A stretch of 64,000 nt of DNA. It comes from Indioceanicola profundi. Its GTDB lineage: Bacteria; Pseudomonadota; Alphaproteobacteria; Azospirillales; Azospirillaceae. The notes under the pieces are model-generated. The model made no database searches. It worked only from the letters and a program-made list of their open reading frames with translations, and had not been told where the DNA came from. Of the stretch, positions 15,351-40,145 are shown in pieces. The translations under genes were made by a program, and so were the position numbers. The stretch is taken from positions 957,001-1,021,000 of the forward strand of contig NZ_CP030126.1 of assembly GCF_003568845.1 (NCBI RefSeq), read 5' to 3'. The first letter of the stretch is position 1. The number at the start of each line of letters is the position of its first letter.

Positions 15351-15376
15351 CCACGCCCCTCGGATGAGGTTCCTCT

Positions 15377-15742: not shown

Positions 15743-15755
15743 GGCCCCGGGATAT

Positions 15756-17821: not shown

Positions 17822-17855
17822 GACGTTGGATGCGCGGCGCCGGCGCCGGTCTGGA

Positions 17856-18119
17856 TCAGACCTTCAGCCTGTCCTTGAGATCCGACATCTGGCCGGGATC
17901 GACGAGATTCAACCGTTGAAGGTCCTCGACCGAGCCGAAGGGGCCGTGTCGATCGCGATGGGCGATGATCTCGTCCGCACGGCCGGGACCGATCCCGCGC
18001 ACGCTCATCAGCTCGTCACGTCCGGCATGATTCAGATCGACGGGCTTGTTCAGCACCTGACGTTCCACGCTGGACCCGTCGATGCGGTCGCGTGGCGCTT
18101 CGCGGCGTTCGCTGGTCAT
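17856..18119 (-). CDS. Small ComEA-like helix-hairpin-helix protein
   Basis: 87 residues. The C-terminal 60 residues (VDLNHAGRDELMSVRGIGPGRADEIIAHRD ... FGSVEDLQRL, here split) are a double helix-hairpin-helix as in ComEA and related DNA-binding proteins. There is no signal peptide or membrane anchor, unlike true ComEA, so a competence role is not implied. A good ribosome site (GAGGAG) precedes the ATG at 18119. It ends 35 bases from cheR, convergent with it, and lies downstream of fliI-fliJ on the same strand. Confidence 0.75.
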   Translation of the reverse strand: MTSERREAPRDRIDGSSVERQVLNKPVDLNHAGRDELMSVRGIGPGRADEIIAHRDRHGPFGSVEDLQRLNLVDPGQMSDLKDRLKV

Positions 18120-18208
18120 TGTGGCTTCTCCTCGCTTGTTGGCGGTGGTGCGAAGTCACGCTCCAACCGGCGAGGTCCATTGCTGTCACGCGGCGGTGAG
18201 GTCCGGGG

Positions 18209-18634
18209 TCAATCCGTCTCGTCCTTGCGACGCTGGAAGCGCGTGGCGCTGATCTCGTCGAAAGTCCCGGTTTCGCGCCTCGCGCGCTCCTGCCTGCGGC
18301 GCTGGTCGCGCTCCTCCTGCGCCAGCTCGTAACGCTTCAGCTCCCGGAAAGCATCCGCCAAAGCCTCTTCCGCGTCTTCCACCCGCTGGCCGGCCTGGAG
18401 GATGGAGCGGTCCAGATTCTCCCGCCGCAGCCGCATCTGCCGCGCGTAAGCGGAGAAGGTCATGGAAACCACGATGGAGCCGGCGGCGACACGCTGCTCC
18501 TCCGCCAACTCGGTGTCCACCCGACTGCGCTCCTCCTGCAGCCGCTCCAGCAGCGTCCGGAGTTCCGTGAGCTGTCGTCGCTGCTCATCCACCTGGAGCT
18601 TGTGAAGTCGGATCAGGGGGCCGAGGTCCTTCAT
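18209..18634 (-). CDS. fliJ: Flagellar export chaperone FliJ
   Basis: 141 residues, almost entirely predicted coiled coil (heptad-rich Leu, Glu and Arg), with the N-terminal LIRLHKLQVDEQRRQL block of FliJ. FliJ works as the stalk of the FliI ATPase ring and escorts export chaperones. It begins 11 bases after fliI, the usual pairing. FliJ is poorly conserved, so the call rests mainly on context plus coiled-coil shape. Confidence 0.85.
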   Translation of the reverse strand: MKDLGPLIRLHKLQVDEQRRQLTELRTLLERLQEERSRVDTELAEEQRVAAGSIVVSMTFSAYARQMRLRRENLDRSILQAGQRVEDAEEALADAFRELKRYELAQEERDQRRRQERARRETGTFDEISATRFQRRKDETD

Positions 18635-18645
18635 GGCGACTCTCC

Positions 18646-19992
18646 TCAGCCTGCGGCGGTGCCGCCGGCATCCATGCCCAGGATCGCGCCCAACTCGGCA
18701 TAGCCGGTGGCTAGGTCGCTCTGTTCATGGATCCGCTGCTTCAGGAAGGCCTCCAGGGCGGGGGCATAGTGGATCGCCTCATCCACCTGCGGGTCGGACC
18801 CGCGCCGGTAAGCGCCGAGCCGGATCATCTCCTCCATGTCGGCATGGGTCGCCATGAGCTGGCGCGCACGCGTCACCAGCGTGTTTTCCGCCTCCGAGTT
18901 ACAGTGCGGCATGGTCCGGCTGACGGATCGGAGGATGTTGATCGCAGGGAACCGGCCGCGTTCAGCGATGCGCCGTTCCATGACGATATGGCCGTCCAGG
19001 ATGCCGCGCACGGCGTCGGCGATTGGTTCCTCCATATCGCCGCCCTCAACCAGGACCGTGAACAGGCCGGTGATGCTGCCTTCTCCGGTACCTGGGCCGG
19101 CCCGCTCCAGCAGGCGCGGAAGCTCGGCGAAGACGGTGGGCGGATACCCCTTGGTGGTCGGCGGTTCCCCGGCGGACAGTCCGATTTCCCGCTGGGCCAT
19201 GGCGAAGCGTGTCACGCTGTCCATCAGGCACAGCACATCCTGGCCCTGGTCGCGGAAATACTCCGCTACCGCCATGGTCATGTAGGCGGCCTGGCGGCGC
19301 AGCAGGGGGGGCTCATCGCTGGTGGCGACGATGACGATGCTACGCGCCAGCCCCTCGGGGCCGAGATCGTTCTCCAGGAACTCCTGCACCTCGCGGCCAC
19401 GCTCACCGATCAGGCCGATCACGCTGACCGGGGCGTCGGTGTAGCGCGCCAGCATCGACATCAGCACGGACTTGCCGACGCCGGAGCCGGCGAAGATGCC
19501 CATCCGCTGCCCGCGGCAACAGGTCAGAAAGGTGTTCAGGGCGCGCACGCCGAGATCGATCTTGGCGCCGACCCGCTTGCGGGCATGGGCTGGCGGCGGG
19601 GCGTTGCGGACGCGCACCGCCTCGGGCCCTTGGGGCAAGGGACCAAGACCGTCGATCGGCTCCCCGAGCGCGTTGATCACGCGCCCTAGCCAAGCGTGGG
19701 TGGGATGGATGGCGGCCTGACCGTCTGCCACCTCCGCCCGGCAGCCGAGGCCGATGTCGTCCAGGCTGCCGAACGGCATGAGCAACGCTCTTCCGGAGCG
19801 GAACCCCACCACTTCGCAGGGCACAACGCGACCGCCGCGTGTTATGACCCGGCACCGCCCGCCGACCGACAATCGGCGTTCCACCCCGCCGACCTCAACA
19901 AGCATGCCAAGTACAGACGTGACCCGCCCGAACACGCGCGCCGCCGGAATAGCTTCAATTTCCTGGATAATCCGGTCAGGGTCGTATTGCAC
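18646..19992 (-). CDS. fliI: Flagellum-specific export ATPase FliI
   Basis: 448 residues from the GTG at 19992. FliI energises export of flagellar subunits. Walker A is [11 protein letters not shown] (about 167-177), Walker B is [20 protein letters not shown], and the [18 protein letters not shown] and [15 protein letters not shown] blocks are typical of the FliI/type III ATPase family rather than F1-beta. The frame also allows a TTG start at 20028, but neither candidate has a good ribosome site; the GTG gives the usual family length. It is divergent from ctrA across a CtrA-box-containing region. Confidence 0.94.
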
Positions 19993-20028
19993 GGGGTCCG
20001 GTTTCCTTGGCGCGCATTGCTGTGCCAA

Positions 20029-23921: not shown

Positions 23922-25442
23922 TCAGGACTGGCCGGGCAGGCGGCTGGTCCGTTCAGTCAGGGCGCGGAGCCCCTCCACGGCATGATGGTCGAATTGGCCG
24001 GGCTGCAGACGCCAGGCCCAGTTGCCGTCCGCCACGCCGGGGATGTTCATCCGGGCTTCCGTACCCAGGCCCAGCACGTCCTGCACGGGCACCACCGCCA
24101 GGCGCGCATTGGTTTCCATCGCATAGCGGATGAAGTCCCAATGTACGGCGGTATGGTTGCTGTGCAGGAAGTCCAGCATCGCCCGACCGGTATCCGAGTC
24201 CACCCCGCCCACATGGCGGAACCAGCCCAGGATCGTGTCATTGTCGTGGGTGCCGGTATAGAAGATCCGGTTCTCTGGATGCCGGCTCGAGTCCGACCGC
24301 TCCGGATGGAAATCCTCTCCCCACTCGAAGGGCAGGACGCGCATGCCGGGGAAACCGAAATGGTCCCGCAGACGCTCCACCTCATCCGTGATGATGCCGA
24401 GGTCTTCTGCAATTACCGGCACATCGCCGAACCGGTCCCGCAGGGACTGGAACAGCTCGTACCCAGGGGCGGGGACCCAGCGGCCATTGATGGCCGTTTC
24501 CTGCCCAGCGGGAATTTCCCAGTATGCCTCGAAGCCGCGGAAATGGTCGACGCGGACCAGATCGACCATCTCGAGCGTCTTGGCCATGCGGAGTTGCCAC
24601 CAGGCGAATCCTTCCGCCCGGTGCGCGTCCCAGCGGTAGAGCGGGTTGCCCCAGAGCTGGCCGGTCGCGCTGAAATAATCCGGCGGGACGCCGGCGACCA
24701 GCGTCGGGCGACCGGTATTGTCCAACTCGAACAAATGTGGCTTGGACCAGACGTCGGCGCTGTCGCCGGCGACGAAGATCGGAATGTCGCCGATGATCCT
24801 CACGCCCTTGGAATGGGCATGGGCGCGCAGCCGCTCCCACTGGCGGAAGAACAGGAACTGCTGAACCTTGATGCGGCGGATTTCCATGCCCAGGCTGTGG
24901 CGCGCCTCTGACAGGCCCATCGGGTCGCGCATGACATAGAGCGCGTTCCACTCCTGCCAGGGCCGGCCGCGATGGCGGTCCTTCAGCGCGATGAAGAGGG
25001 CGTAGTCGTCCAGCCAGTCGGCTTCATGCCGGGCGCGGAAGAGGTCGAAATCGGCCCACAGCTCATCGCTGCCGTCACGGCGCAGGAAGTTGGCGCAGAC
25101 CTCGTCCAGCGCCGCCAGCTTTGCCGAGACCACGTCGCCGTAATCCACGCCGTTTGCCCGGTTCTGCGGCAGGCGGTACTGGATAGCGCTGTCGGCCAAC
25201 CCCTCCGCGATCAGGTCGTCGAAGCTGATCAGCAGCGGATTGCCGGCGAAGGTGGAGAGGGCGGAATAAGGGGAGTTGCCGGCACTGGTGGGACCGAGCG
25301 GCAGGATCTGCCACCAGGACTGCCCGGCTTCCGCAAGCTGGTCCACGAAGTGGCGGGCCGCCGGGCCCAGGTCGCCGATGCCATGGCCACCGGGTAGGCA
25401 TGTTGGATGCAGCAGGATGCCGCTGGCGCGCTCGAGGTTCAT
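23922..25442 (-). CDS. malQ: 4-alpha-glucanotransferase (amylomaltase)
   Basis: 506 residues, GH77. MalQ moves glucan chains between maltodextrins and releases glucose. Seen: the N-terminal GILLHPTCLPGGHGIGDLG, SYSALSTFAGNPLL-type block (here SPYSALSTFAGNP), DIPIFVAGDSADVW, the nucleophile region VDLVRVDHFRGFEAYWEIP (Asp about 295), acid/base VIAEDLGIIT (Glu about 345), and FYTGTHDNDT with the third carboxylate. It is divergent from the phosphorylase-kinase-like gene with a HexR-type site between them. Confidence 0.95.
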   Translation of the reverse strand: MNLERASGILLHPTCLPGGHGIGDLGPAARHFVDQLAEAGQSWWQILPLGPTSAGNSPYSALSTFAGNPLLISFDDLIAEGLADSAIQYRLPQNRANGVDYGDVVSAKLAALDEVCANFLRRDGSDELWADFDLFRARHEADWLDDYALFIALKDRHRGRPWQEWNALYVMRDPMGLSEARHSLGMEIRRIKVQQFLFFRQWERLRAHAHSKGVRIIGDIPIFVAGDSADVWSKPHLFELDNTGRPTLVAGVPPDYFSATGQLWGNPLYRWDAHRAEGFAWWQLRMAKTLEMVDLVRVDHFRGFEAYWEIPAGQETAINGRWVPAPGYELFQSLRDRFGDVPVIAEDLGIITDEVERLRDHFGFPGMRVLPFEWGEDFHPERSDSSRHPENRIFYTGTHDNDTILGWFRHVGGVDSDTGRAMLDFLHSNHTAVHWDFIRYAMETNARLAVVPVQDVLGLGTEARMNIPGVADGNWAWRLQPGQFDHHAVEGLRALTERTSRLPGQS

Positions 25443-25543: not shown

Positions 25544-25710
25544 ATCACTTTCGGATGTGAGCCGTTGTTAAGAATTGCGCGCTATCGGTGATGTCCGGCT
25601 TGCCAAGGACCGCGTTCCGGTACCAGGATTACAAAATCCATGTGCGACAGATGGCCCGACGGCCGTTTCAAGAGACATAGCCCTCGCGCCCTGCCACGGT
25701 TCGACGCCCC

Positions 25711-28700
25711 ATGACACTTCAGCTCCTTCCGCCCGGCAGCATCAGCGGTCCGGAAGCGTCCATCGCGGCGCTGGACCGGCTGTACGATCATGTCACAAAG
25801 GTGATGCTGTCGCGCCAGCACCCGGTCACCGGCCTGCTGCCGGCCAGTACGGCGATCACCGTGCATGGCAATTACACCCATGCGTGGGTCCGAGACAACG
25901 TCTACAGCGTCATCGGCGCCTGGGCACTTGGGTTGGCCTACCGCCGAAGGGGCGACCGTCCCGCTCGCGCCCGGTTGCTTGAGCAGTCGGTGCTGAAGAC
26001 CATGCGCGGCCTGCTTCAGGCCATGATGCGGCAGGCCGCGAAGGTGGAGAGGTTCAAGCACACCCAGAACCCGCTGGACAGCCTGCACGCGATCTATTCC
26101 GCCAGCACCGGGGAAACGGTGGCGCAGGATAATGGCTGGGGGCACCTCCAGATCGACGCCACCTCGCTGTTCCTGCTGATGCTGGCGCAGATGACGCGCT
26201 CCGGCCTGCCGATCCTGTACACCATGGACGAGGTGGCGTTCGTCCAGAATCTGGCCCACTACATCGGCCCGGCCTACCGCATCGCCGATTACGGCATCTG
26301 GGAGCGGGGCCGGAAGATCAATGACGGCAGGGCGGAGCTGAATGCCAGTTCCATCGGCATGGCGAAGGCGGCGCTGGAAGCCATCCAGGGCATGGACATG
26401 TTCGGGGAGGACGCGTTCGGCGCCGGCGAGGGGCGGCAGGCCGTCATCCATGTGGTCCCCGACGAGATCGCCCGCGCCCGCGCCACGCTGGAAGCGCTGC
26501 TGCCGCGCGAATCGGGTTCCAAGGAGGTGGATGCGGCGCTCCTCTCCGTGATCGGCTGGCCCGCCTTCGCGGTGGAGGACCCCGATCTGGTGGCCCGCAC
26601 CAGCGCCAACATCGCGGCCAAGCTGGAAGGGCGCTGGGGCGCCAAGCGCTTCCTGCGCGACGGGCATCAGACCGCGTTGGAAGACCATAACCGCCTGCAC
26701 TACGAAGCAGGGGAGCTGAGCCGCTTCGACGGGATCGAATCGGAATGGCCGCTCTTCTTCACCTATCGCTATGTCACGGCTCTGCTGACCGGAGACCGGG
26801 AGGCGGCGTCCGTCTACCGGAAGAAGCTGGACGGGCTGCTGGTGGAGCGGCATGGAGAACCGTTGCTGCCCGAGCTGTTCATCGTCCCTGCCGAGCTGGC
26901 AGAGGCCGAGCGGGCCGCACCGGGCAGCCAGCCGCGCGTGCCGAACGAGAATGTGCCGCTGCTCTGGGCACAGAGCCTGTATGTGGTGGGGCTGCTGCTG
27001 GAAGCGGGATTGCTCGCCCCGGCGGATATCGACCCGCTGAACCGCCGCTCACGGATCGGGCGCAAGCCGCCGGTGCCGGTTCGGCTGGTGGTGCTGGCCG
27101 AGGATGAGGATATCCGATGCAGCCTCGGCAGGTTCGGGGTGGAAGCCCAGCGTCTCGATCCCGCCGGTCCCGTCGCTGTCTGCGCGCCCGACGTGCTGAC
27201 GGAGGTGCTGGGCCACATCGGCGACTGTCCCGCACTGGGTTTGACCGGGCGGCCGCCGCGCCGTCTCGGCAGCCTCATCACGGCGCAGGCTTTCCGCCTT
27301 TCGGGCAAGCCGACCGTGTTCGTGCCGACCTTCATCGGTGAGGATGGCTTCTATTTCAGCTTCGACAACCGCTTGGTGATCCAGCGGCTTCTGACCGAGG
27401 TGGCCTATGTCAACCGGAGCTGGACCCGGTCGGAGGCGCCGCTGCTGGTGCTGCCAGTGACCCATGGCATGACGGAGTCCGCCGGTTTCGACGAGCTGGC
27501 GCGGACACTGGCCGCCCTCTCGGCGGGGCGGGTTCCGGAGTTGGCGATCCGGGGCGTGACCTTGGGGCAGGCGCTGGCCGACGCCCATACGGTCAGCCTG
27601 CACGGCGTGCCGCCGGGACGACCGCTTGCGCCCTCCAACCGCTTCGAAGTGGCGGCCGAGACCGAGGCGCTGGACCGTCCGGATCTGTCGGAGGAGGAGC
27701 AGTTGGAGCTTCTCTACCGCACGGCCGGACGCCACGGACAATGGGCCACCGTCCGAACCGCGGCTTACCGGCTTGGCCGGCATGACGAGCGGTTGCAGGA
27801 CGCGGTCAAGGAGATGGTGGTGCGCCGCAAGCGCATCATGCTGGGCCGCACCGGACAGCCCGGCGATCTGGTTGATACGCCGCTGGACAATGCCGGGGTG
27901 ATCGCCCGGCTGGCGCGAGCCTGCGCCGGCGACCCCTGCCAGGACATGTTGGCCGAGGAGATGGTGCTGTTCTGCGGGACAGCGGTGAAGGCGAACCCGG
28001 ACCTGTTCCGCCACTGCCTGACGCTCCGCCCGCTTGACCTGGTCGGACTGCTGGTGCGCAGCCTTCAACGGGACCGGAGCATCGACGAGGCGGAGGCCTG
28101 CCGGCACCTTGCCGGGGAGAGCCCGCATAACGTGGCGACGCGGCTTCGCCGGCTTATCGCTGGCTGTCCGGGGATGACGGGGGAGTTCTGTCTTCCAACG
28201 CTGAGCGGGATGGAGTCCGACCGGCCGGTCTTCGGACTGGAGGCGGAGACGGCGGGCTGGGTGGCGGGCTTCATCGCCGGCGGCTGCGACTGGGCGGCAT
28301 GGCGGGACGCAACCGGTGCGCTGCTGCCGGTGCCTCCTGACTTCTTCGCCAGGGTCTGGGAGGTGCTGCACCATTGCGATGCCCTGGTGATCGCCGATCC
28401 AGCCGAACCCGCACACCGGCTGGACAGCTTCGTGCTGCGGGCCGATGCCACGCCGGACGAGCGGGATTTCGCGTTGGCGGTGGAGCTGCTGTTGGACCGG
28501 ATCGCCGATCCCGCCTATCGACAGCTCACGGTGGAGACGCTGTGGGCCATGTCGGAGCTGCTCCGGGCCCGTTCGGACCTGCGGATCAAAGGGAGCGTCG
28601 CGGTGGACGAGCTTCTGGCCGCCGCTGTGTGCGCCCAGGGGATCGCAGACCCGGCGGAGGCATGGCGCCGCTTCCGTGCCCTTTCGCCGACGGAGGTGGC

Positions 28701-28764
28701 CGAGGCGGTTGCCGCCACCTTTCCAGCCCGTGCCGGCAGTCCAGGAGTAAGCGTAGCGGCCTGA
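25711..28764 (+). CDS. Phosphorylase kinase alpha/beta subunit-like GH15-fold protein
   Basis: 1017 residues, no signal peptide. Residues 20-450 align strikingly, from memory of the family, with the glucoamylase-like domain of animal phosphorylase b kinase regulatory subunits: HPVTGLLPAS, YTHAWVRDNVYSVIGAWALG, MRGLLQAMMRQAAKVERFKH, WGHLQIDATSLFLLMLAQMT, YGIWERG, LNASSIGMAKAALEA, SKEVDAALLSVIGWPAFAVED, LPELFIVP, LWAQSLYVVG. The C-terminal half also has PHKA-like blocks such as LAEEMVLFCGTAVKANPDLF. It is a full-length relative, not just the catalytic fold. A calmodulin or kinase gamma subunit is not present. Role here is probably binding or cleaving maltodextrin or glycogen; direct enzymatic activity is untested by sequence alone. 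The ATG at 25711 is the first in a clear coding frame. Confidence 0.85.
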   Translation: MTLQLLPPGSISGPEASIAALDRLYDHVTKVMLSRQHPVTGLLPASTAITVHGNYTHAWVRDNVYSVIGAWALGLAYRRRGDRPARARLLEQSVLKTMRGLLQAMMRQAAKVERFKHTQNPLDSLHAIYSASTGETVAQDNGWGHLQIDATSLFLLMLAQMTRSGLPILYTMDEVAFVQNLAHYIGPAYRIADYGIWERGRKINDGRAELNASSIGMAKAALEAIQGMDMFGEDAFGAGEGRQAVIHVVPDEIARARATLEALLPRESGSKEVDAALLSVIGWPAFAVEDPDLVARTSANIAAKLEGRWGAKRFLRDGHQTALEDHNRLHYEAGELSRFDGIESEWPLFFTYRYVTALLTGDREAASVYRKKLDGLLVERHGEPLLPELFIVPAELAEAERAAPGSQPRVPNENVPLLWAQSLYVVGLLLEAGLLAPADIDPLNRRSRIGRKPPVPVRLVVLAEDEDIRCSLGRFGVEAQRLDPAGPVAVCAPDVLTEVLGHIGDCPALGLTGRPPRRLGSLITAQAFRLSGKPTVFVPTFIGEDGFYFSFDNRLVIQRLLTEVAYVNRSWTRSEAPLLVLPVTHGMTESAGFDELARTLAALSAGRVPELAIRGVTLGQALADAHTVSLHGVPPGRPLAPSNRFEVAAETEALDRPDLSEEEQLELLYRTAGRHGQWATVRTAAYRLGRHDERLQDAVKEMVVRRKRIMLGRTGQPGDLVDTPLDNAGVIARLARACAGDPCQDMLAEEMVLFCGTAVKANPDLFRHCLTLRPLDLVGLLVRSLQRDRSIDEAEACRHLAGESPHNVATRLRRLIAGCPGMTGEFCLPTLSGMESDRPVFGLEAETAGWVAGFIAGGCDWAAWRDATGALLPVPPDFFARVWEVLHHCDALVIADPAEPAHRLDSFVLRADATPDERDFALAVELLLDRIADPAYRQLTVETLWAMSELLRARSDLRIKGSVAVDELLAAAVCAQGIADPAEAWRRFRALSPTEVAEAVAATFPARAGSPGVSVAA

Positions 28765-28770
28765 GACAGC

Positions 28771-29657
28771 TCAGGGCACCTCGATGCCGCGGGCAGCTTC
28801 CAGCAGCCTGTACCAGTCCTGCCGGTCCAGTTTGATGCGCGCTGCGCCCGCCGCACCGGCCAGACGGTCCAGGCGGCCGGTTCCGACCAGGGGGCGGATG
28901 CCGGCGGGATGGGTCATCAGCCAGGCAAGCGCCACCTGATCGGGCACCGCCCCGCCATGGGCCTGACCAACCTCCCAGAGGACGGCGCGGAGGCGATCAA
29001 GCTCCGGTGAGGCGGCGGGGTCCCGGAACAGCCCGCCGCCGCCCAGCGGCGACCAGGCCATCGGGACCATGCCGGTCTGCATGCAAGCGTCAAGCGTGCC
29101 ATCGAACAGGGCGTCTGGATGCTCCAGGCTGATCTCCACCTGGTTCGCCACGAGGGGCTCCTCCACGCGGGAGGCCAGCATGCGAACCTGGCTGGCGCTG
29201 AAGTTGGAGACGCCGAAGGCCAGGACCTTGCCGGATCGTTTCAGCTCCGTAATGGCTGCCGCCACCTCGTCCGGGTTCATCAGCGGGTCGGGGCGGTGGA
29301 GCAGCAGGTAGTCCAGCCGGTCAGTGCGCAGCTCCCGCAGGGACCGCTCCGCCCGTTCGATCAGGTGAACCTTGGAGAGATTGTAATGTTTGGTGCGGAC
29401 AGGGTTGCCGGGGGCATCGAACATCACCCCGATCTTGCCGATCAGCACGATCCGGTCACGTAGCCCCGGCTCGAGCGCGAGCGCTTCCCCGAACCGCCCC
29501 TCCACGGTGTAGCCGCCATAACAGTCTGCGTGGTCGAAGCTGTTGATGCCCAGATCGACGGCGGCCTTCATCCAGTCGCGCAGGCCAGGAGCATCCAGGC
29601 CCCATTGCAGCAGCCGCATGCAGCCAACGACGACAGGTGACAGGGCAGGGGCGGTCG

Positions 29658-29661
<4 letters not shown>
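28771..29661 (-). CDS. Aldo/keto reductase, YdhF-like
   Basis: 296 residues, NADPH-dependent. The tetrad is visible: Asp and Tyr in [22 protein letters not shown] (split here: [10 protein letters not shown]), Lys in VLIGKIGV, His in [11 protein letters not shown]. The blocks [22 protein letters not shown] and [10 protein letters not shown] are close to E. coli YdhF. Its ATG overlaps the glgB stop (ATGA at 29658-29661), so it is translated with glgB and is last in the hexR-glgB-AKR operon. Substrate unknown. It ends 6 bases from the stop of the phosphorylase-kinase-like gene. Confidence 0.88.
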
Positions 29662-31868
<2,207 letters not shown>

Positions 31869-31912: not shown

Positions 31913-32755
31913 TCAGGCCCGCTGGGTGGTGCGTCGCTCGCGGATCGGCCGCTTGGAGCGGACCAGGCTGTTAGTGAGCCCGGTGCCGCGCCGAAGGGCG
32001 ACGCCGACCTGCAGTACGTCCACCATCGCCAGATGGGAGAGGCGGGAGGTCATGGGCGTGTAGATGCTGGTATCCTCCTCCACATCCACCAGGAGCGACA
32101 CGGTAGCGCGTTCGGCCAGCGGGGTGCCGCCGGTGGTCAGGGCGATGACCTTCGCCCCGCTCTCCAGCGCCAGCTCGACGCTGCGCAGCAATTCCCGGGT
32201 CCGTCCGGTATGGGAAATGGCGAGCACCGCTGCCTCCGGCCCAAGGATGGCGGCGGACATGGCCTGGACATGGAAGTCGGTATAGGCCGTGCAGGGCAGG
32301 CCAAGGCGGAAGAACTTGTTCTGCGCGTCCATCGCCACGATGCCGGACGCGCCGAAGCCGTAGAATTCCAGCCGCTTCGCGGCGCAGAGGATATCCACCG
32401 CCATGCCGACGGCATCGGCATTGATCTGATTGCGGATGCGGGCGATGGCCGCCATGGAGCGGTTCAGCACCTTCGCCGCCACATCCGCGATGGGATCGTC
32501 CGGTTTCACATCTTCGTGGACATAGGGCGTGCCGGTGGCAAGGTCCTGGGCCAGGCGAAGCTTGAAATCCTGAAAGCCGGCGCAGCCGATGGCCCGGCAG
32601 AAGCGCACCACGGTGGGCTGGCTCACCGCGGCATCGCGCGCCACCTCCGCGACCGAGGCATTGACCATGGAATGCGGGCGCTTCAGCACCAGCTCGGCAA
32701 TCTTCTGCTCGGATTTGCGCAGGCCCGGCATCATCGCGCGGATGCGTTCAAGCAC
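31913..32755 (-). CDS. hexR: HexR/RpiR-family transcriptional regulator
   Basis: 280 residues. An N-terminal RpiR-type helix-turn-helix ([23 protein letters not shown], here split after residue 20: [20 protein letters not shown]) precedes a sugar-phosphate SIS domain (about 115-250: [29 protein letters not shown]). HexR represses or activates central carbon genes and is released by KDPG. The start is set at the GTG at 32755 because GGGGGAGGAG lies 7 bases before it and [20 protein letters not shown] then aligns with the HexR N-terminus; a second GTG at 32779 is weaker. First gene of a hexR-glgB-AKR operon with HexR-like operators upstream. Confidence 0.88.
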
Positions 32756-32866
32756 GCCTCGTCTCCTCCCCCTTGTCACGCCTTCGGGCTTTTATCAGCC
32801 CTTGGATCAGAACGCTTCGGGCGTGATGGCCTTTCGGCATCTTTTCAACAGGAATGCCCTGGGTTT

Positions 32867-33218: not shown

Positions 33219-34742
33219 TTGCCGAATCCAAGGTTCTGGCGTGGCTCCGCGGGGAGCCTCGCGCGTCGTTGCGGCGTCGCGCTGCTGGCAATTGCCGCCC
33301 TCGGTACGGCCGCCGGCCCCGCCTTGGCGCAGAAGCCGATTCGGCCCTGGTCGGAGGACATCCTCTATTTTCTGCTCCTCGATCGCTTCGCCGACGGCAG
33401 CAAGTCGAATAACGCGGATGTGCAGCGGGATAATCCAGGCGGCTTCCATGGCGGCGACTTCGTCGGGCTGACTCAGCGGCTGGACGATCTGGCGGACCTT
33501 GGCGTTACCGCCATCTGGATCACTCCGGTGATGGAGCAGATCAAGCATCCGGTCAACAGCGGCCTGGATTTCGAACATTGGCCCCATCACGGTTACTGGG
33601 CGGACGACTTTTCCCTGATCGACCCACGCTTCGGCACCGAGGCGGAGCTGAAGGCCCTGGTGGATGCGGCCCACGACCGCGGTATCAAGGTGCTGCTGGA
33701 TACAGTCTACAACCACGCCGGCTACGGCTCCGCCTATCTCGCCAGGCCGGACGCGCGGGATCTGCTCCGCTCCACGGAATTCAATAACTGCGGACCCGAA
33801 GGGGACGACCTGACCACCTGCGTGGCCGGACTGCCGGACTTCAAGACGGAGAAGCCCGAGGTCGCCAAGTGGTTGATCGAGATGCAGATTCCCCGTGCCA
33901 AGGCGGTGGGGCTGGACGGCTATCGGCTCGACACGGTGAAGCATCTGGGTCCCGAATTCTGGGACATGCACCGGAAGATCATCGACCAGGAGCTGGGTCA
34001 GGACTTCCATCTTCTGGGTGAAATCTGGGGCGGCAGCTATCAGGTGGCGGACCCGTACTTCGAGGCGAACCGGCTGGACAGTGCGCTGGACTTCACCTTC
34101 CAGGGCGAGACGCTGTCCTGGCTCCAGGGGCGGGGGCGGACCATCGCCTTCAGCCGCTTCTTGCAGAAGCGCCACCGGGTACGCGACGGCCACATCATGG
34201 CGCACTACCTGTCCAGCCATGACGTGCCGGGGTTCCTCTATCAGCTCGACGGCGATCTGGAGCGGTTCAAGGTGGCGGCCGCGCTGCAGATGGCCAGCCT
34301 CGGCATGCCCCAGATCTATTACGGGGAGGAGGTCGGGCGGCTGGGCGGCGACTGGCCGGAGAACCGAACCGACATGCCCTGGGGCGACATGGATATCCAG
34401 CCCGGCAAGGGCAAGCCTCGGAACGAGGAGTTACGCGACTACTACAAGCGCATCATCGCAGCCCGCCGCGCCCATCCGGCCTTCTCCCACGGCGACTACA
34501 CGGAGCTGAGCACCGAGGGCGACCTGCTGGTGTTCCAGCGCAGTCACGAGCCTAGCGGTGACAGCGTCATCGTCGCTGCCAACCGGAGTAAGGCGGAGGC
34601 GGCCGCCACGATCCCGCTCCCGGAATCCTGGACGGGCAAGAGCATTACCGACGCTGTCACGGGCGAGGATCTGGGCGAGGCGGGGGCGCAGATAGCCCTT
34701 ACCGTGCCGGGACTGACCGCCCGCTATCTGGTCGTGAAGTGA
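33219..34742 (+). CDS. Secreted alpha-amylase family (GH13) glycosidase
   Basis: 507 residues starting at a TTG (33219) preceded by GAGGGGG. A Sec signal with SLARRCGVALLAIAALG and cleavage after PALAQ (about residue 38) exports it. GH13 regions: LLDTVYNHAG (about 159-168), YRLDTVKH with nucleophile Asp238, LLGEIWGG with acid/base Glu268, YLSSHD with Asp335. Most like maltodextrin- and starch-degrading amylases or cyclomaltodextrinases; substrate range is uncertain. First gene of the uptake operon; 34 bases before the ABC ATPase. Confidence 0.9.
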   Translation: MPNPRFWRGSAGSLARRCGVALLAIAALGTAAGPALAQKPIRPWSEDILYFLLLDRFADGSKSNNADVQRDNPGGFHGGDFVGLTQRLDDLADLGVTAIWITPVMEQIKHPVNSGLDFEHWPHHGYWADDFSLIDPRFGTEAELKALVDAAHDRGIKVLLDTVYNHAGYGSAYLARPDARDLLRSTEFNNCGPEGDDLTTCVAGLPDFKTEKPEVAKWLIEMQIPRAKAVGLDGYRLDTVKHLGPEFWDMHRKIIDQELGQDFHLLGEIWGGSYQVADPYFEANRLDSALDFTFQGETLSWLQGRGRTIAFSRFLQKRHRVRDGHIMAHYLSSHDVPGFLYQLDGDLERFKVAAALQMASLGMPQIYYGEEVGRLGGDWPENRTDMPWGDMDIQPGKGKPRNEELRDYYKRIIAARRAHPAFSHGDYTELSTEGDLLVFQRSHEPSGDSVIVAANRSKAEAAATIPLPESWTGKSITDAVTGEDLGEAGAQIALTVPGLTARYLVVK

Positions 34743-34776
34743 AACCGGACGAGCCGCAGAAGAAGACCTGATCCGA

Positions 34777-35898
34777 ATGGCCCAGATTATTTTCGACAAT
34801 GTTGCCAAGCGCTTCGGCGACGTTCCGGTCATCGAGAACCTGAACCTGCACATCGCGGATCAGGAATTCATGGTCTTTGTCGGCCCGTCGGGTTGCGGCA
34901 AGTCCACGGCATTGCGCATGATCGCGGGGCTGGAGGAGATCAGCGCCGGGGACCTCACGATCGGGGACCGGGTGGTGAATGATGTCCACCCCAAGGACCG
35001 CGACGTGGCCATGGTCTTCCAGTCCTACGCGCTGTATCCGCACATGACGGTGCGGGAGAACATCGCCTTCGGCCTGAAGATCCGGAAGATGCCGAAGCCG
35101 CAGATCGACGCGCTGGTCGGCGAGGCGGCGACCATGCTGGGCCTGACCGAGTATCTGGACCGCAAGCCGCGCGCCCTGTCCGGCGGCCAGCGGCAGCGCG
35201 TGGCGCTGGGCCGCGCCATCGTGCGAAAGCCCAAGGTCTTCCTGTTCGATGAGCCGCTGTCGAACCTGGACGCGGAGCTGCGCGTCACCATGCGGGCGGA
35301 AATCTCCAAGCTTCAGCGGCGGCTGAAGATCACCACGGTCTATGTCACCCATGATCAGGTGGAAGCCATGACCATGGGCGACCGCATCGCCGTTCTGGCC
35401 CCGCTGAAGCGGCACCCCGGCGGCAACCTGATGCAGGTCGGCACCCCGCTGGAGCTGTACGACCGTCCGCAGAACCTGTTCGTGGCGCGATTCATCGGCA
35501 CGCCGTCCATGAACGTGATCCAGATGGCGGTGGACGCGGACGGCACGGCCCTGCGCTACCACGACCTAGCGATCCCGGTGCCGGCCTCTTTCCGGGCCGG
35601 CATCTCCGCCCACCGCGGCAAGGCGGTGGCGGTGGGCTTCCGGCCGGAGCATGTGGGCCATGTGGAGGAGCACCAGTGGGGCGCTACCGCCCCGATCCGC
35701 GGTCAGGTCGAGATTGTGGAGACGCTCGGCCATGAGGCCATCGTTCATTTCCGGGTCGGCGAGGAAATGGTGATCGGCAAAATCCGTGGACATGGCGTCG
35801 TGCTGCCGCGGATCGGTGATCTCATCGAACTGGTGGTCAAGGCGGACGAGCTGCACCTGTTCGACGCCCAGACTGAAAAGCGCATCGCCGAAGCGTGA
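34777..35898 (+). CDS. ABC transporter ATPase, MalK/UgpC type
   Basis: 373 residues. Walker A GPSGCGKST, Q-loop VFQSYALYPHMTV, signature LSGGQRQRVALGRA, Walker B VFLFDEPLSNLDAELR and H-loop VTHDQ are intact; residues 240-373 are the MOI/TOBE regulatory domain. It energises the MalFG-type permease encoded downstream. The short insert in LAPLKRHPGGNLMQVG after the H-loop is unusual compared with E. coli MalK. An imperfect hairpin follows before malE. Confidence 0.92.
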   Translation: MAQIIFDNVAKRFGDVPVIENLNLHIADQEFMVFVGPSGCGKSTALRMIAGLEEISAGDLTIGDRVVNDVHPKDRDVAMVFQSYALYPHMTVRENIAFGLKIRKMPKPQIDALVGEAATMLGLTEYLDRKPRALSGGQRQRVALGRAIVRKPKVFLFDEPLSNLDAELRVTMRAEISKLQRRLKITTVYVTHDQVEAMTMGDRIAVLAPLKRHPGGNLMQVGTPLELYDRPQNLFVARFIGTPSMNVIQMAVDADGTALRYHDLAIPVPASFRAGISAHRGKAVAVGFRPEHVGHVEEHQWGATAPIRGQVEIVETLGHEAIVHFRVGEEMVIGKIRGHGVVLPRIGDLIELVVKADELHLFDAQTEKRIAEA

Positions 35899-35976
35899 GG
35901 CAAAAAAGGCGGAACAGCGTTCAGCAGTGACCCCGGCGCAGGACGGGGCCGCTGCTCAAGGGAGGAATGAGGAATC

Positions 35977-37239
35977 ATGCAGTTTTCGCGCAGGAACCTG
36001 ATCCTTGTGGCCGGAGCGGCCATGTTCGCGACGGCGCTGACCGTTCAGGCGGCACCTCCGGCGCTGGCACAGGGCCAGACGCTGACCGTGTGGCACGCCT
36101 ACCGCGGCGAGGAGAGGGCGGCGTTCGACAAGGCCATCAAGCTGTTCAATGAGCAGAACCAGGGCGGCGTCCAGGCCAAGGCCCTGCCGGTGCCGTTCGA
36201 CGCCTATGCCGACAAGATCTCCGCCGCCGTGCCGCGCGGCACCGGTCCGGACCTGTTCATCTTCGCGCAGGACCGGCTGGGCGGCTGGATCGAGGCCGGC
36301 AACATCATCGAGCCGATCGACTTCTATATCGAGGACGATGTCCGCGAGCGCTTCCTGCCGAACATGATGGAGGCGATGACCTATCGCGACCAGGTGTTCG
36401 GCCTGCCGTTCAAGTACGCGGCCATCGCCATGATCTACAACAAGGCGAAGGTCCAGAACCCGCCCAGGACGACGGGCGAGCTGGTGACGTGGGCCAAGGC
36501 CAACACCGACGCCTCCACCGGCCGCTATGGCTGGTCCTACACCTATGCCGACTTCTACTACCATGCCGCGCTGATGAACGGCTTCGGCGGCGGGCTCTTC
36601 ATGACCGACGGCGCTGGCACCCTGGCCGAGCCGACGGTGAACAGTCCGGCGAACGTGAAGTCGTTCGAACAGCTCATGAGCTGGTTCAAGCAGGACGGCG
36701 TCCTGCCGGCGGAACCCTCCACCGCGCTGGTCACCTCCCTGTTCAACGAGGGGAAGTCGGATATCGTCTTCTCCGGCCCGTGGTTCCTGGGCGAGGTCGC
36801 GAAGGGCATCGAGATCGGCGTCGCGCCGCTGCCGACGCTGGACGAGGCCGGCGGCGAGCCGATGCGGCCCTGGATGACGGTGGAGGGGCTGTTCGTCTCC
36901 GCCCAGTCGAAGAACAAGGACGCGGCCTATGAGCTGGCCCGCTTCCTGACCACCGACGAGGTGGCGAAGATCATGGCGCTGGAAGGCCGGCAGCAGCCCA
37001 CCAACAAGAATGTCTACAGCGATCCGGCCATTGCCAAGGACCCGATCCTGTCCGGCTTCCGCGCCCAGGCGGAAACCGCCGTCCCGATGCCGAACCTGGC
37101 GGTGATGTCGCTGATGTGGTCGCCGATGACCACGGCCATGAACAAGATCGTCAAGGGCACCGCCAGCCCGAAGCAGGCCCTGGACGAGGCGCAGCAGATG
37201 CTGGCCGCCGATATCGCCAACCTGCGTAAGAGCCGGTGA
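35977..37239 (+). CDS. malE: Maltose/maltodextrin-type extracellular binding protein
   Basis: 420 residues. A signal peptide with SRRNLILVAGAAMFATALTV and cleavage after PALAQ carries a Tat-like RR pair, so Tat export is possible. The mature part has the type-1 binding-protein pattern: LTVWHAYRGEERAAFDKAIK, VPRGTGPDLFIFAQDRLGGW, YAAIAMIYNKAKVQ, WSPMTTAMNKIVKG. MalE is most likely given the amylase and MalF/G neighbours. A ribosome site GGGAGGAATGAGG lies just before the ATG. Confidence 0.88.
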   Translation: MQFSRRNLILVAGAAMFATALTVQAAPPALAQGQTLTVWHAYRGEERAAFDKAIKLFNEQNQGGVQAKALPVPFDAYADKISAAVPRGTGPDLFIFAQDRLGGWIEAGNIIEPIDFYIEDDVRERFLPNMMEAMTYRDQVFGLPFKYAAIAMIYNKAKVQNPPRTTGELVTWAKANTDASTGRYGWSYTYADFYYHAALMNGFGGGLFMTDGAGTLAEPTVNSPANVKSFEQLMSWFKQDGVLPAEPSTALVTSLFNEGKSDIVFSGPWFLGEVAKGIEIGVAPLPTLDEAGGEPMRPWMTVEGLFVSAQSKNKDAAYELARFLTTDEVAKIMALEGRQQPTNKNVYSDPAIAKDPILSGFRAQAETAVPMPNLAVMSLMWSPMTTAMNKIVKGTASPKQALDEAQQMLAADIANLRKSR

Positions 37240-37249
37240 GACAGGGCCG

Positions 37250-39214
37250 ATGAAGGTGCGGCAGCATACAGGGTATTCGGCGCTCCTCGGCCTGTTGGCC
37301 GGGCTGGTGGTGCTGTTGGCGGCGGGCCTGTGGTTCGCCGGCCAGACCATCCAGTCCGCCCGGCAGGATGCGGAGGCGCGCAAGGCCACCGTGTCGGCCA
37401 TGAGCCTGGCCGACATGGTGGGCGCCCTGCAGGCTGCCGGGGCCGAACCGGAACAGGTTCGCGCAGCGGTGGAGACGTGGCGGCGGGGCGACCCCGGCAT
37501 CCGGGCCGTCCGGCTGATCCGCCAGTCCGGCGCCCAGCTCGTCTACTCCGACGTTCCGGCCGACCTGGAGAAGGGCGATGTTCCCCGCCGCCTGTCCCGC
37601 GAGGAGAAGCCGCTGTTCGATCTGGCCAACGCCCTGCGCGCCAATGTCGACAGCAACGCCGGCGAGGGGATCAAGCGGCTTCCGGAGATCGAGCTGGCCG
37701 CCCCGGCCGCCGACCGGCTGGGCGTATCGGTTCCGGTCTATGCCGGAGACAGCTACTGGGGCCTTGCCCAGGTGGAGCGGGAGCGGGCGGCGCCGGCCAT
37801 CGCCGCCGGAACCGGTCTGGCCGTCGGCATGGCGCTCGGCGGTCTGGTGCTGATGGCGGCGGCGGTCCTGGCGCTCCGGCGAAGGGGCGGGGCTGCCGCA
37901 TCGCGCTGGACTCTGTTCGCCATCGCCGCGGTTCTGCTGCTGGGCACGGCCGCCCTGTTCGTGCGGACGGAGACCGGCCGCGTGGCGGATGCGCGGAACG
38001 GCCAGATTGCCGAGGTGCAGCAGGTCGTCACCGGCCTTCGCGGCTCCGCTGCGGAAGGGGCCGGCATCGTGGGAGCGGGCCTGGGGGCGGGCGCCTGGGA
38101 TGTGGATATCTTCCGCCGTCCTCTCGGTCAGATTTCGCCGACGGGAGAGGTCGAGGATGCGGCCGTCCGGCAGGCGCTGACCGGCACGCTGGACGGTCTG
38201 GGGCGGCAGCTCTGGCTGACGGCGGCGCTGGCGCTGGGCATCACCGCCTTTTTCGCGCTGGGAGCCGCGGGGCGGCTGGCCGGCACGGTGCGGGAGCACC
38301 GGGACGCGTATGTCTACGTGCTGCCCGCCATCCTGGGCATGCTGTTCCTGGTCTTCTTCCCCTTCACCTACGGCGTGATGCTGTCCTTCACCGAGCGCAC
38401 CCTGTTCAACCAGTCGGTTCCGCTGACCGAACTGTGGGTGGGCTTCGCCAATTACGCCGCCATCCTGGGCGACTTCGACGTGATCCGCACCACGCCGGAC
38501 GGCTGGAGCGTGAATTACGAGAGCTTCTACTGGACGCTGTTCATCACCGTCTGCTGGACCGTCGCGAACGTGGCCATCGGCGTTGCCGTCGGGCTGGCGC
38601 TTGCGCTGGCGCTGAACACCGAGGGGCTGCGGGGCAAGGCGGTCTACCGCGTGCTGCTGATCCTGCCCTGGGCCATCCCGAACTACATCACGGCGTTGAC
38701 CTGGAAGGGCATGTTCCACCAGCAGTTCGGCGTCATCAACCAAGCCATCATGCTGTTCGGGGGCGAGCCCATCGCCTGGTTCGACAGCGTGTTCAGCAGC
38801 TTCATGACCGGTGTCATCACCAACGGCTGGCTGAGCTTCCCCTTCATGATGGTGGTGAGCCTGGGCGCGCTCTCCTCCATCCCGTCGGACATGTACGAGG
38901 CGGCGCAGCTCGACGGCGCCACACGGTGGCAGCAGTTCTGGAACATTACCCTGCCGTTGCTGAAGCCGGCGCTGATCCCGGCCATCATCCTGTCGGTGGT
39001 CTGGACCTTCAACATGTTCAACGTGATCTATCTGGTGTCGGGCGGGGAGCCCGCGGGCGCTAACGAGATCCTAATCACCAAGGCCTACAAGCTGGCGTTC
39101 GAGCGCTACCAGTACGCCTACGCCGCGGCCTATTCCTTCGTGATTTTCCTGATCCTGCTGGGCTACGGGGTCTTCCAGAACCGGGTCAGCCGGGCCACGG
39201 AACAGGTGCGGTGA
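37250..39214 (+). CDS. malF: MalF-type permease with a sensor-like N-terminal extension
   Basis: 654 residues, about 140 more than E. coli MalF. The C-terminal ~310 residues are a normal MalF core with VYVLPAILGMLFLVFFPFTYG, the EAA loop EAAQLDGATRWQQFWNITLP and the C-terminal helix. The first ~340 residues are unusual: TM1 (about 9-31), an extracytoplasmic domain of about 150 residues with VRLIRQSGAQLVYSDVP and LGVSVPVYAGDSYWGLAQVE, reminiscent of Cache sensors, two more TMs (about 185-240), a second short extracytoplasmic loop and another TM (about 315-338). It begins 10 bases after malE. Confidence 0.85.
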   Translation: MKVRQHTGYSALLGLLAGLVVLLAAGLWFAGQTIQSARQDAEARKATVSAMSLADMVGALQAAGAEPEQVRAAVETWRRGDPGIRAVRLIRQSGAQLVYSDVPADLEKGDVPRRLSREEKPLFDLANALRANVDSNAGEGIKRLPEIELAAPAADRLGVSVPVYAGDSYWGLAQVERERAAPAIAAGTGLAVGMALGGLVLMAAAVLALRRRGGAAASRWTLFAIAAVLLLGTAALFVRTETGRVADARNGQIAEVQQVVTGLRGSAAEGAGIVGAGLGAGAWDVDIFRRPLGQISPTGEVEDAAVRQALTGTLDGLGRQLWLTAALALGITAFFALGAAGRLAGTVREHRDAYVYVLPAILGMLFLVFFPFTYGVMLSFTERTLFNQSVPLTELWVGFANYAAILGDFDVIRTTPDGWSVNYESFYWTLFITVCWTVANVAIGVAVGLALALALNTEGLRGKAVYRVLLILPWAIPNYITALTWKGMFHQQFGVINQAIMLFGGEPIAWFDSVFSSFMTGVITNGWLSFPFMMVVSLGALSSIPSDMYEAAQLDGATRWQQFWNITLPLLKPALIPAIILSVVWTFNMFNVIYLVSGGEPAGANEILITKAYKLAFERYQYAYAAAYSFVIFLILLGYGVFQNRVSRATEQVR

Positions 39215-39218
39215 AGCC

Positions 39219-40145
39219 ATGACGACGATGACCGCCGCCTCCACCCCTGCAACCGGCAGCACCCGCATGCCGCGAAAGCGCTCGGCACCGCGTCACCTCG
39301 GGCTGCATCTCGGGCTGGGGCTGTTCACGCTGCTGGCCTGCTACCCGATCCTCTGGGTGATGGCGCTTGCCTTCTCCGGACAGCAGAGTCTGTCCATCGC
39401 CTCATTGCCGCCGGATGCAGGCTTCCTGGATCGGCTGCGCGCGGTCACTCCCTGGCCGGCGCAGCTATCATTGCAGAACTTCAAGGACGTTCTGACCGAG
39501 CAGCCGTTCCTGACTTGGCTGGTGAACAGCGCCATCGTGGCGGGGCTGACCACCATCGTCGGCGTCTTCCTGGCCTGCACCGCGGCCTATGCCTTCTCCC
39601 GCTTCCGGTTTCCGGGGCGGCAGTCGGGCATGATGATGTTCCTGGTGTCCCAGATGTTCCCGGGCACGCTGATGATGATCCCTCTCTACATCATCATCGT
39701 GAGCTGGCTGGGTCTGGGGAACAGCTATATCGGGCTGGTTCTGGTCTACGCGGTGACGGCCATTCCCTTCTGCGTGTGGATGCTGAAGGGCTATTTCGAC
39801 ACGATCCCCATCGAGATCGAGGAGAGCGCCATCATGGACGGCGCTTCCCGCTCCACGATCTTCTTCCGCATCATCCTGCCGCTGGCCAAGCCCGCGGTGG
39901 CGGTGACGGCGCTCTTCTCCTTCATGACCGGCTGGAACGAGTTCATCCTGGCCTCCGTCTTCATGACGGAGGAGGGGCGGTACACGGCTCCGGTCGGCCT
40001 GCGCTTCTTCGTCGGCGGGTTCTCCGCCCAGTGGGGATATTTCGCCGCCGGCTCGATCATCGTCTCGCTGCCGGTCGTGATCCTCTTTCTCTATCTGCAG
40101 AAATATCTCGTCTCCGGTCTCACGGCGGGGGGCGTGAAGGGCTAG
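39219..40145 (+). CDS. malG: MalG-type permease
   Basis: 308 residues, six predicted membrane helices and the EAA loop ESAIMDGASRSTIFFRIILP that docks on the ATPase. LACYPILWVMALAFSG and GWNEFILASVFMTEEGRYT are typical MalG. It begins 4 bases after malF. A GC-rich hairpin (GGCCCC/GGGGCC at 40149-40164) follows the stop. Confidence 0.92.
   Translation: MTTMTAASTPATGSTRMPRKRSAPRHLGLHLGLGLFTLLACYPILWVMALAFSGQQSLSIASLPPDAGFLDRLRAVTPWPAQLSLQNFKDVLTEQPFLTWLVNSAIVAGLTTIVGVFLACTAAYAFSRFRFPGRQSGMMMFLVSQMFPGTLMMIPLYIIIVSWLGLGNSYIGLVLVYAVTAIPFCVWMLKGYFDTIPIEIEESAIMDGASRSTIFFRIILPLAKPAVAVTALFSFMTGWNEFILASVFMTEEGRYTAPVGLRFFVGGFSAQWGYFAAGSIIVSLPVVILFLYLQKYLVSGLTAGGVKG

What the first reader, a model, noticed from the sequence alone, without database searches (positions are those of the whole stretch)
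25711..28764. Full-length bacterial relative of eukaryotic phosphorylase kinase alpha/beta in a glycogen locus
Long blocks are nearly superposable on animal PHKA/PHKB through the glucoamylase-like domain, and the C-terminal half also has PHKA-like segments. In animals this is a regulatory scaffold for a kinase that controls glycogen phosphorylase. No kinase or calmodulin is encoded here. Its place beside malQ and glgB suggests an ancestral glucan-sensing or glucan-cleaving role.
Basis: partly seen in the sequence, partly recalled or inferred. Interest (0 to 1): 0.75.

Follow-up and report, generated by a model that had tools for sequence, protein, structure and literature searches.

The report
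Bacterial cousin of glycogen-control scaffold
A bacterium carries, among genes for importing and trimming starch sugars, a full-length cousin of the scaffold proteins that help switch on glycogen breakdown in animals, and the bacterial version still looks able to cut sugar chains; the protein family is already listed in databases but its bacterial job seems untested.

Summary
ORF 25711-28764 (+, 1017 aa) matches Pfam GH15 (1e-64) and KPBB_C, the phosphorylase kinase C-terminal domain (2e-39). Its only PDB sequence matches are PhK alpha and beta. The predicted structure superposes on PhK alpha over 929 residues (Z 43.8), so the match is not confined to the barrel. It is not unique: Pfam covers the family, found in 33 of 146 genomes sampled from the cyanobacterial phylum and 8 of 398 Pseudomonadota. 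The locus is a maltodextrin uptake and processing cluster (MalQ, GlgB, RpiR regulator, GH13, MalEFGK-like); GlgP lies 0.65 Mb away. Both GH15 catalytic Glu are present in 99 of 99 bacterial rows. The bacteria also keep a Tyr and an Asn shared with ordinary GH15 enzymes; human alpha lacks both at those columns. Three of eight Pseudomonadota carriers lack GlgP and two of fourteen carriers lack a PF00069 kinase, so a PhK-like role is not required. Best reading: a cytosolic GH15-type alpha-glucan enzyme on a PhK-type scaffold. Activity is unproven.

The parts
25711..28764 (+). PhK alpha/beta-like protein, 1017 aa, about 111 kDa, no CaaX C-terminus
25750..27018 (+). [quoted passage not shown]
   Evidence: Kribbella GH15 rows end at model residue 435-436; Pfam PF00723 spans residues 20-773 against 422 profile positions, that is with long insertions
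25873..25896 (+). Tyr55 ... Trp59, Arg61, Asp62: GH15 subsite -1 motif with the Tyr-to-Asp spacing (+7) of TtGA and AgGD
   Evidence: residue roles from PMC12446779 passages
26302..26304 (+). Glu198, aligned to PHKA Glu185 (catalytic Glu)
   Evidence: Glu185/Glu371 from PMC10978961 passages
26872..26874 (+). Glu388, aligned to PHKA Glu371 (Lys in PHKB)
28072..28722 (+). KPBB_C, PhK C-terminal domain, residues 788-1004
   Evidence: PF19292 E 2.3e-39
23922..25442 (-). MalQ (GH77 4-alpha-glucanotransferase), divergent, 268 bp away
28771..29661 (-). aldo/keto reductase, convergent (6 bp gap); this start overlaps the GlgB stop
   Evidence: start chosen by eye
29658..31868 (-). GlgB branching enzyme
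   Evidence: PRK05402 1039.7 bits, cut-off 741
31913..32779 (-). RpiR-type regulator (HTH_6 + SIS)
33219..34742 (+). GH13 alpha-amylase-family enzyme (nearest named models: alpha-amylase, cyclomaltodextrinase, maltodextrin glucosidase, all below cut-off)
34777..35898 (+). MalK-like ABC ATPase
   Evidence: ABC_tran, OB_MalK
35977..37239 (+). extracellular solute-binding protein of an ABC importer (MalE-like position)
37250..39214 (+). ABC permease (MalF-like position)
39219..40145 (+). ABC permease (MalG-like position)

Best explanation
The protein is a cytosolic, catalytically competent GH15-type alpha-glucan enzyme. Its barrel (D1) would remove glucosyl units from the non-reducing ends of maltodextrins that are imported by the neighbouring ABC system or released by debranching, working together with MalQ and GlgB. 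The D2-D5 part is the same scaffold found in PhK alpha/beta and probably drives oligomerisation or partner binding. In eukaryotes the same architecture became a kinase scaffold and glucan turnover was lost or reduced. Shown: architecture, predicted fold, catalytic residues, gene neighbourhood. Inferred: substrate, hydrolysis, cytosolic site (no signal peptide seen by eye), oligomerisation, direction of evolution.
For: Both catalytic Glu are present in 99 of 99 distinct bacterial rows (89; 10 further rows among the 38; all 99 sequences differ). Tyr55, Trp59, Arg61, Asp62, Glu198, Arg199, Glu388 and Asn412 are invariant in 38 of 38 bacterial rows and shared with 3 of 3 conventional GH15s from held genomes. 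Of 148 near-invariant bacterial columns in residues 14-599, human alpha keeps 130 and beta 108; the nine kept by neither include His52, Tyr55, Asn412, Asn414 and Leu417. Linkage to alpha-glucan genes recurs in three arrangements: MalQ next to it and divergent in the window and the seven other Azospirillaceae-type carrier genomes seen; RpiR-GlgB-GlgX-MalQ-PhKab on one strand in L019; PhKab-GlgB-GlgX in L021 and L022 (GlgX above its curated cut-off in all three). It is the only GH15 match in the window's own genome, in G341 and in G214. G341 and G214 lack GlgP by two searches and G214 also lacks MalQ, so a hydrolytic exit for maltodextrins would fill a gap there.
Against: No activity is known. 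Human PhK alpha keeps both Glu and showed no hydrolysis of maltose, isomaltose or glycogen (PMC10978961, passages). The Gln that follows the general base in three inverting GH15s is Leu or Val in 38 of 38 rows, and the Ala named in PMC12446779 appears to align with Asn414. The window locus already has a GH13 enzyme that could take maltodextrins to glucose. No glucan-gene marker (six used) was found by BLAST in the held flanks of L017, L018, L020, L023 and L047, nor within 5 kb of any of 73 cyanobacterial loci, only 46 of which hold 5 kb on both sides; three Calothrix-type loci have GlgB 7-9 kb away. GlgP absence is not enriched among carriers: 5 of 8 have GlgP against 216 of 398 sampled genomes, and 10 of 10 genomes of named loci have a PF00343 match, one of them only remote. 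In Synechococcus, GlgP is reported as the primary route of glycogen degradation (PMC7728383, passages), although the S. elongatus control has the family.
Confidence: 0.57

Rival explanations
1. A catalytically slow or silent glucan sensor and scaffold: D1 binds chain ends and D2-D5 bind and regulate GlgB, MalQ or another glucan enzyme, as PhK alpha/beta do for the kinase.
For: The whole PhK D1-D5 architecture is kept; human alpha has both Glu but no measured activity; the Gln next to the base is replaced.
Against: The subsite -1 residues tested are invariant in all bacterial rows; no partner is shown; the cyanobacterial loci have no linked glucan gene within 5 kb.
Confidence: 0.22
2. A GH15-type enzyme with another reaction: isomaltose- or trehalose-directed hydrolysis, or transglucosylation.
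For: The closest non-PhK structures are the Kribbella isomaltose glucohydrolase (Z about 26), bacterial glucoamylase 1lf6 (Z 24.6) and dextran dextrinase 9ju0 (Z 23.0); the only NCBIfam hit is an archaeal trehalase far below its cut-off; the surroundings of the base are non-canonical.
Against: The residue before the base is Pro, as in inverting KfIG and AgGD, not the Gly of the retaining dextran dextrinase cluster; the linked genes are alpha-1,4-glucan genes.
Confidence: 0.15
3. A PhK-like regulator that works with a bacterial Ser/Thr kinase on glycogen phosphorylase.
For: Homology to PhK alpha/beta; 12 of 14 carriers do have a PF00069 kinase; a proteomics abstract names a cyanobacterial protein 'glycogen phosphorylase kinase' (PMC6716455; not checked to be this family).
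Against: 3 of 8 Pseudomonadota carriers have no GlgP; 2 of 14 carriers have no PF00069 match; no Ser/Thr kinase or GlgP in the scanned neighbourhoods.
Confidence: 0.03

Closest known systems
Human phosphorylase b kinase subunits alpha and beta (PHKA1, PHKB; PDB 8jfk)
   Same: Same order and fold along the full length; 47% (alpha) and 39% (beta) identity over D1-D2; Z 43.8 for 8jfk_A and 37.1 for 8z5t_B.
   Different: No counterpart of an alpha stretch of roughly 50 residues ahead of alpha 1040, no CaaX end, no Ser/Thr kinase gene in the scanned neighbourhood; keeps Tyr55 and Asn412, which both human subunits lack at those columns; beta also lacks the Trp, Arg and base Glu.
Cyanobacterial GH15 + KPBB_C proteins (e.g. 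Calothrix NIES-3974, L059; S. elongatus rings in the PF19292 control)
   Same: Same two-domain family, 41-44% identity to the window protein, same catalytic Glu.
   Different: Closer to human PhK: 54-55% to alpha and 47-49% to beta for the three compared (L030, L059, L093). No glucan-gene marker within 5 kb.
Conventional GH15 (KfIG 5z3a, TtGA 1lf6, AgGD 1ug9)
   Same: Barrel fold and the subsite -1 residues named in PMC12446779.
   Different: They align to the barrel part only; Gln follows the base where this family has Leu or Val.

Membership tests
PhK alpha/beta-like family (Pfam PF00723 + PF19292) | GH15-type domain followed by the PhK C-terminal domain, both above curated cut-offs | tested here: met
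   219.5 bits (cut-off 22) and 135.4 bits (cut-off 27)
PhK alpha/beta-like family (Pfam PF00723 + PF19292) | Full-length D1-D5 fold | tested here: met
   929 residues, Z 43.8, on an AlphaFold2 model with pLDDT 81.9 and pTM 0.84; residues 822-857 and a few loops are below pLDDT 50
Animal PhK holoenzyme subunit | C-terminal CaaX farnesylation motif | tested here: not met
   C-terminus ...SPGVSVAA; CaaX in the human subunits from PMC10978961 passages
Animal PhK holoenzyme subunit | Partner gamma kinase and calmodulin | tested here: inconclusive
   No Ser/Thr kinase among scanned neighbours; own genome has one PF00069 match elsewhere (C1:2463175), G018 and G027 none; calmodulin was not searched for
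Animal PhK holoenzyme subunit | Controls glycogen phosphorylase | not testable with these tools
   3 of 8 carriers lack GlgP, which argues against it as the general role
GH15 glucohydrolases | Two catalytic Glu | tested here: met
   E198 and E388; 99 of 99 bacterial rows
GH15 glucohydrolases | Tyr and Arg-Asp of subsite -1 | tested here: met
   Y55, R61, D62; 38 of 38 rows and 3 of 3 conventional GH15s
GH15 glucohydrolases | Gln after the general base, described for KfIG, TtGA and AgGD | tested here: not met
   Leu389; L in 35 and V in 3 of 38 rows, so it is not filed as a canonical glucoamylase; the third GH15 (L123, trehalase-type) has a gap there too
GH15 glucohydrolases | Hydrolysis of alpha-glucosides | not testable with these tools
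   needs an enzyme assay

The most novel reading that the evidence does not exclude
The animal PhK regulatory subunits are retired glucan enzymes. A bacterial protein, most likely of cyanobacterial kind, already had the complete D1-D5 scaffold and cut maltodextrin chain ends as a phosphorylase-free exit from glycogen. After transfer to eukaryotes and duplication, alpha lost an active-site loop with its Tyr plus an Asn, and beta lost the base, while the glucan-binding pocket stayed as a sensor that tunes the kinase.
Probability: 0.24. Interest if true: 0.78.

Novelty: new member of a known kind. Interest (0 to 1): 0.5.

Why it matters
What the glucoamylase-like domains of phosphorylase kinase are for is an open question; the 2024 structure paper says their significance still requires further investigation (PMC10978961, passages). 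A single-gene bacterial relative with an intact-looking active site, no obligatory kinase and clear glucan-gene neighbours in several lineages offers a simple system in which to measure activity, map the pocket and learn what was lost on the way to animals, where PhK defects cause glycogen storage disease.

Tried and rejected
Alignment limited to the generic barrel: rejected. Antisense ORFs 25582-26853 and 27049-28416 as the real genes: rejected on codon-position GC (0.67 and 0.74 at third positions against 0.83-0.85) and on the homology of the + strand ORF. Plasmid carriage: no match for the window protein; the cyanobacterial query hit only two weak E. coli stretches, 24.6% and 27.3% identity. 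GlgP co-occurrence: no association. NCBIfam names no family for it. Searching the PDB with the trehalase-type GH15 L123 gave only pentatricopeptide-repeat hits through one short stretch, taken as spurious. Placing PHKA and PHKB on the tree: their joint branch has only 88/56 support and both are long; without PHKB and L125, PHKA falls inside the set of cyanobacterial and L017/L018/L122 rows (95/88); the outgroup-rooted D1 tree leaves it unresolved among cyanobacterial rows. L017/L018/L122 sit with four cyanobacterial rows (87/95, 88/92) but with the other Pseudomonadota (92/79), so their source is open. Only human PhK sequences were at hand, so a eukaryote-wide test was impossible. G032, of the same genus as four carriers, has MalQ but no PF19292 match. 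Rows dropped before counts: L024, L026 and L029 (same contigs as L013, L016 and L014); PHKB and L125, and the trehalase-type GH15. The script missed MalQ beside L014 because the two ORFs overlap there; and L029, the same contig, show it. Papers: PMC10978961, PMC12446779, PMC6716455, PMC11046441 and PMC7728383 were seen as passages only, others only in search listings; Pallen 2003 (PMC2323967) is not held and was seen only in a reference list. No paper on the function of bacterial PhK alpha/beta-like proteins turned up in the listings, which cover open-licence papers only.
Full report
OBSERVATION. The ORF at 25711-28764 (+) codes for 1017 aa. Pfam finds GH15 (PF00723, E 1e-64) and KPBB_C (PF19292, E 2.3e-39, residues 788-1004). 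phmmer against all PDB chain sequences returns two distinct sequences at E<=1, PhK alpha (603 bits) and beta (471 bits), each in three stretches that include the C-terminal region. A profile of 39 family members scores 1094.6 and 914.9 bits on them; the only other row up to E 10 is CobN at E 0.39, and no conventional GH15 appears. The AlphaFold2 model (pLDDT 81.9, pTM 0.84) superposes on PhK alpha over 929 residues at 3.5 A and Z 43.8, model 14-1017, and on beta over 928 residues at Z 37.1. GH15 enzymes align over about 330-360 residues at Z 18-26, mostly within model residues 1-450. Alpha residues 1051-1223 alone (PDB 8xyb) align to model residues 858-1017 at Z 18.1.

HOW COMMON IT IS. The window's genome has one PF19292 match. 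PF19292 is found in 5 of 59 genomes of relatives, own included, in 2 of 37 genera; in 8 of 398 Pseudomonadota genomes, own included, in 6 of 213 genera; and in 34 of 146 genomes of the cyanobacterial phylum, 33 above the cut-off. Those 33 genomes measure 2.3-7.3 Mb; several genomes of 5.7-6.5 Mb in the list have none. Of 14 control genomes only Synechococcus elongatus rings. The nearest named relative is Aerophototrophica crusticola (69%), then Niveispirillum and allies (60-61%). So this is a patchy alphaproteobacterial member of a known family that is more frequent in Cyanobacteria in these samples.

ACTIVE SITE. The 2024 PhK structure paper gives Glu185 and Glu371 of alpha as the catalytic pair and reports no detectable glucoamylase activity (PMC10978961, passages). 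They align with window Glu198 and Glu388; both are Glu in 89 of 89 bacterial rows, while PHKB has Lys at the second. In a D1 alignment of 38 bacterial rows, 10 of them new, with three conventional GH15s from held genomes, Tyr55, Trp59, Arg61, Asp62, Glu198, Arg199, Glu388 and Asn412 are invariant in the bacteria and shared by all three GH15s; two MAFFT modes agree. The 99 bacterial sequences behind these two counts all differ. PMC12446779 (passages) describes the corresponding Tyr (Tyr326 AgGD, Tyr337 TtGA, Tyr48 KfIG) as bonded to the general base, and an Asp seven or eight residues later; window Tyr55 to Asp62 is seven. Human alpha has a loop six residues shorter here and Gln at the Tyr column. 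One of its Tyr lies two residues further up and might substitute, so this difference needs the coordinates. Alpha also has Met for Asn412 and His for Leu417. Beta in addition lacks the Trp, the Arg and the base. Of 148 near-invariant bacterial columns in residues 14-599, 99 are kept in both human subunits, 31 in alpha only, 9 in beta only and 9 in neither (His52, Tyr55, His319, Gln320, Asn412, Asn414, Leu417, Ala420, Glu563). Against a canonical enzyme: the Gln that follows the base in KfIG, TtGA and AgGD is Leu (35) or Val (3) in 38 rows, and the Ala singled out in that paper appears to align with Asn414 (my inference from L134 and L135). The residue before the base is Pro, as in KfIG and AgGD, and not the Gly of the retaining cluster.

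SURROUNDINGS. Minus strand: MalQ (23922-25442, divergent, 268 bp away), and RpiR regulator, GlgB and aldo/keto reductase (31913-32779, 29658-31868, 28771-29661, the last two overlapping). Plus strand beyond: GH13 enzyme, MalK-like ATPase, binding protein and two permeases (33219-40145). This reads as maltodextrin import and processing; the GH13 enzyme fits no named NCBIfam model above its cut-off. The classical GlgP is at C1:1630753, about 0.65 Mb from the gene, with a remote PF00343 match on C4; the two PF08323 glycogen-synthase matches are on C4 and at C1:3253591. In relatives the link recurs in three arrangements: MalQ beside it and divergent in the seven other Azospirillaceae-type genomes seen; RpiR-GlgB-GlgX-MalQ-PhKab in L019, an alphaproteobacterium of another family; PhKab-GlgB-GlgX in L021 and L022, Pseudomonadota of another class. 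The GlgX calls are above the curated cut-off of TIGR02100 (810, 758 and 763 bits against 641). A second copy in G455 (L122) has an MFS transporter two genes on and a GH13 enzyme three genes on. No glucan-gene marker was found in the held flanks of L017, L018, L020, L023 or L047, nor within 5 kb in any of 73 cyanobacterial loci (46 with 5 kb on both sides; three Calothrix-type loci have GlgB 7-9 kb off). Pfam scans of one to three neighbours each at those five loci, and of two neighbours each at five cyanobacterial loci, also showed none.

WHAT THE GENOMES LACK. Of the eight Pseudomonadota carriers, G341, G214 and G242 have no PF00343 match and no match to the window genome's GlgP. This is no enrichment, since 216 of 398 sampled genomes have PF00343 and 10 of 10 genomes of named loci do too, Calothrix G456 only remotely. 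G341 has no PF08323 glycogen-synthase match either, and G214 and G198 have no MalQ. In G341, G214 and the window genome the PhK-like gene is the only GH15 match. Two of 14 carriers, G018 and G027, have no PF00069 kinase match. A role that needs glycogen phosphorylase or a Hanks-type kinase is thus not general, while a hydrolytic exit for maltodextrins would make sense in G341 and G214.

HISTORY. The window groups with the Azospirillaceae-type rows (100/100, 100/98). Its wider place differs: with other Pseudomonadota and L125 at 92/87, weakly with L047 and L019 (72/35), with all other Pseudomonadota except L047 inside cyanobacterial rows in the rooted tree (92/79). L017, L018 and L122 sit with four cyanobacterial rows but with Pseudomonadota. 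The three cyanobacterial proteins compared are 54-55% identical to human alpha and 47-49% to beta over D1-D2, while alpha and beta are 43% identical to each other. Without PHKB and L125, PHKA falls inside the set made of cyanobacterial and L017/L018/L122 rows (95/88). With one species of eukaryote and long branches this is a lead, not a result.

VERDICT. The family itself is known to Pfam; nine searches of an open-licence library listed no paper on its bacterial function. The most likely function is an alpha-glucan enzyme on a PhK-type scaffold (0.57), followed by a glucan sensor or scaffold (0.22) and another GH15 reaction (0.15). Interest is moderate: an ordinary family membership, with a sharp and easily tested question about what the PhK barrel was for.

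Noticed in passing
L122 6893-10078 (-) and L047 9875-13168 (+), both genome G455: One gammaproteobacterial MAG (SZUA-272) carries two copies, 46.5% identical, both with both catalytic Glu; unlike human beta, neither copy has lost the base.
   Followed up: partly
L017, L018, L122: This subgroup matches KPBB_C far better (292-297 bits) than the window protein (135 bits) and sits with cyanobacterial rows in two of three trees, suggesting gene transfer; the rooted D1 tree disagrees.
   Followed up: partly
G198 and G214 (L021, L022): Same genus and same PhKab-GlgB-GlgX order, but only G198 has a GlgP match, so GlgP can be gained or lost while this gene stays.
   Followed up: no
L024, L025: Carriers of the Azospirillaceae type include Aerophototrophica crusticola and isolate AAP38, names that point to aerobic phototrophs (inference from names); a link with phototrophy was not tested.
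   Followed up: no
window 12067-20028: Chemotaxis and flagellar-type genes lie upstream: CheA-like (12067-14856), CheR (16919-17821), FliI/EscN-type ATPase (18646-20028).
   Followed up: no
G000:C2:911998-913527: The window's genome has a second GH77 (MalQ-type) match inside a 1911-aa open frame, and G027 and G032 have a like one; probably a large fusion protein.
   Followed up: no
L125 8460-11717 (-), genome G602: A full-length member from a 2.3 Mb genome of the cyanobacterial phylum has a very long branch (2.39); fast evolution or changed function.
   Followed up: no
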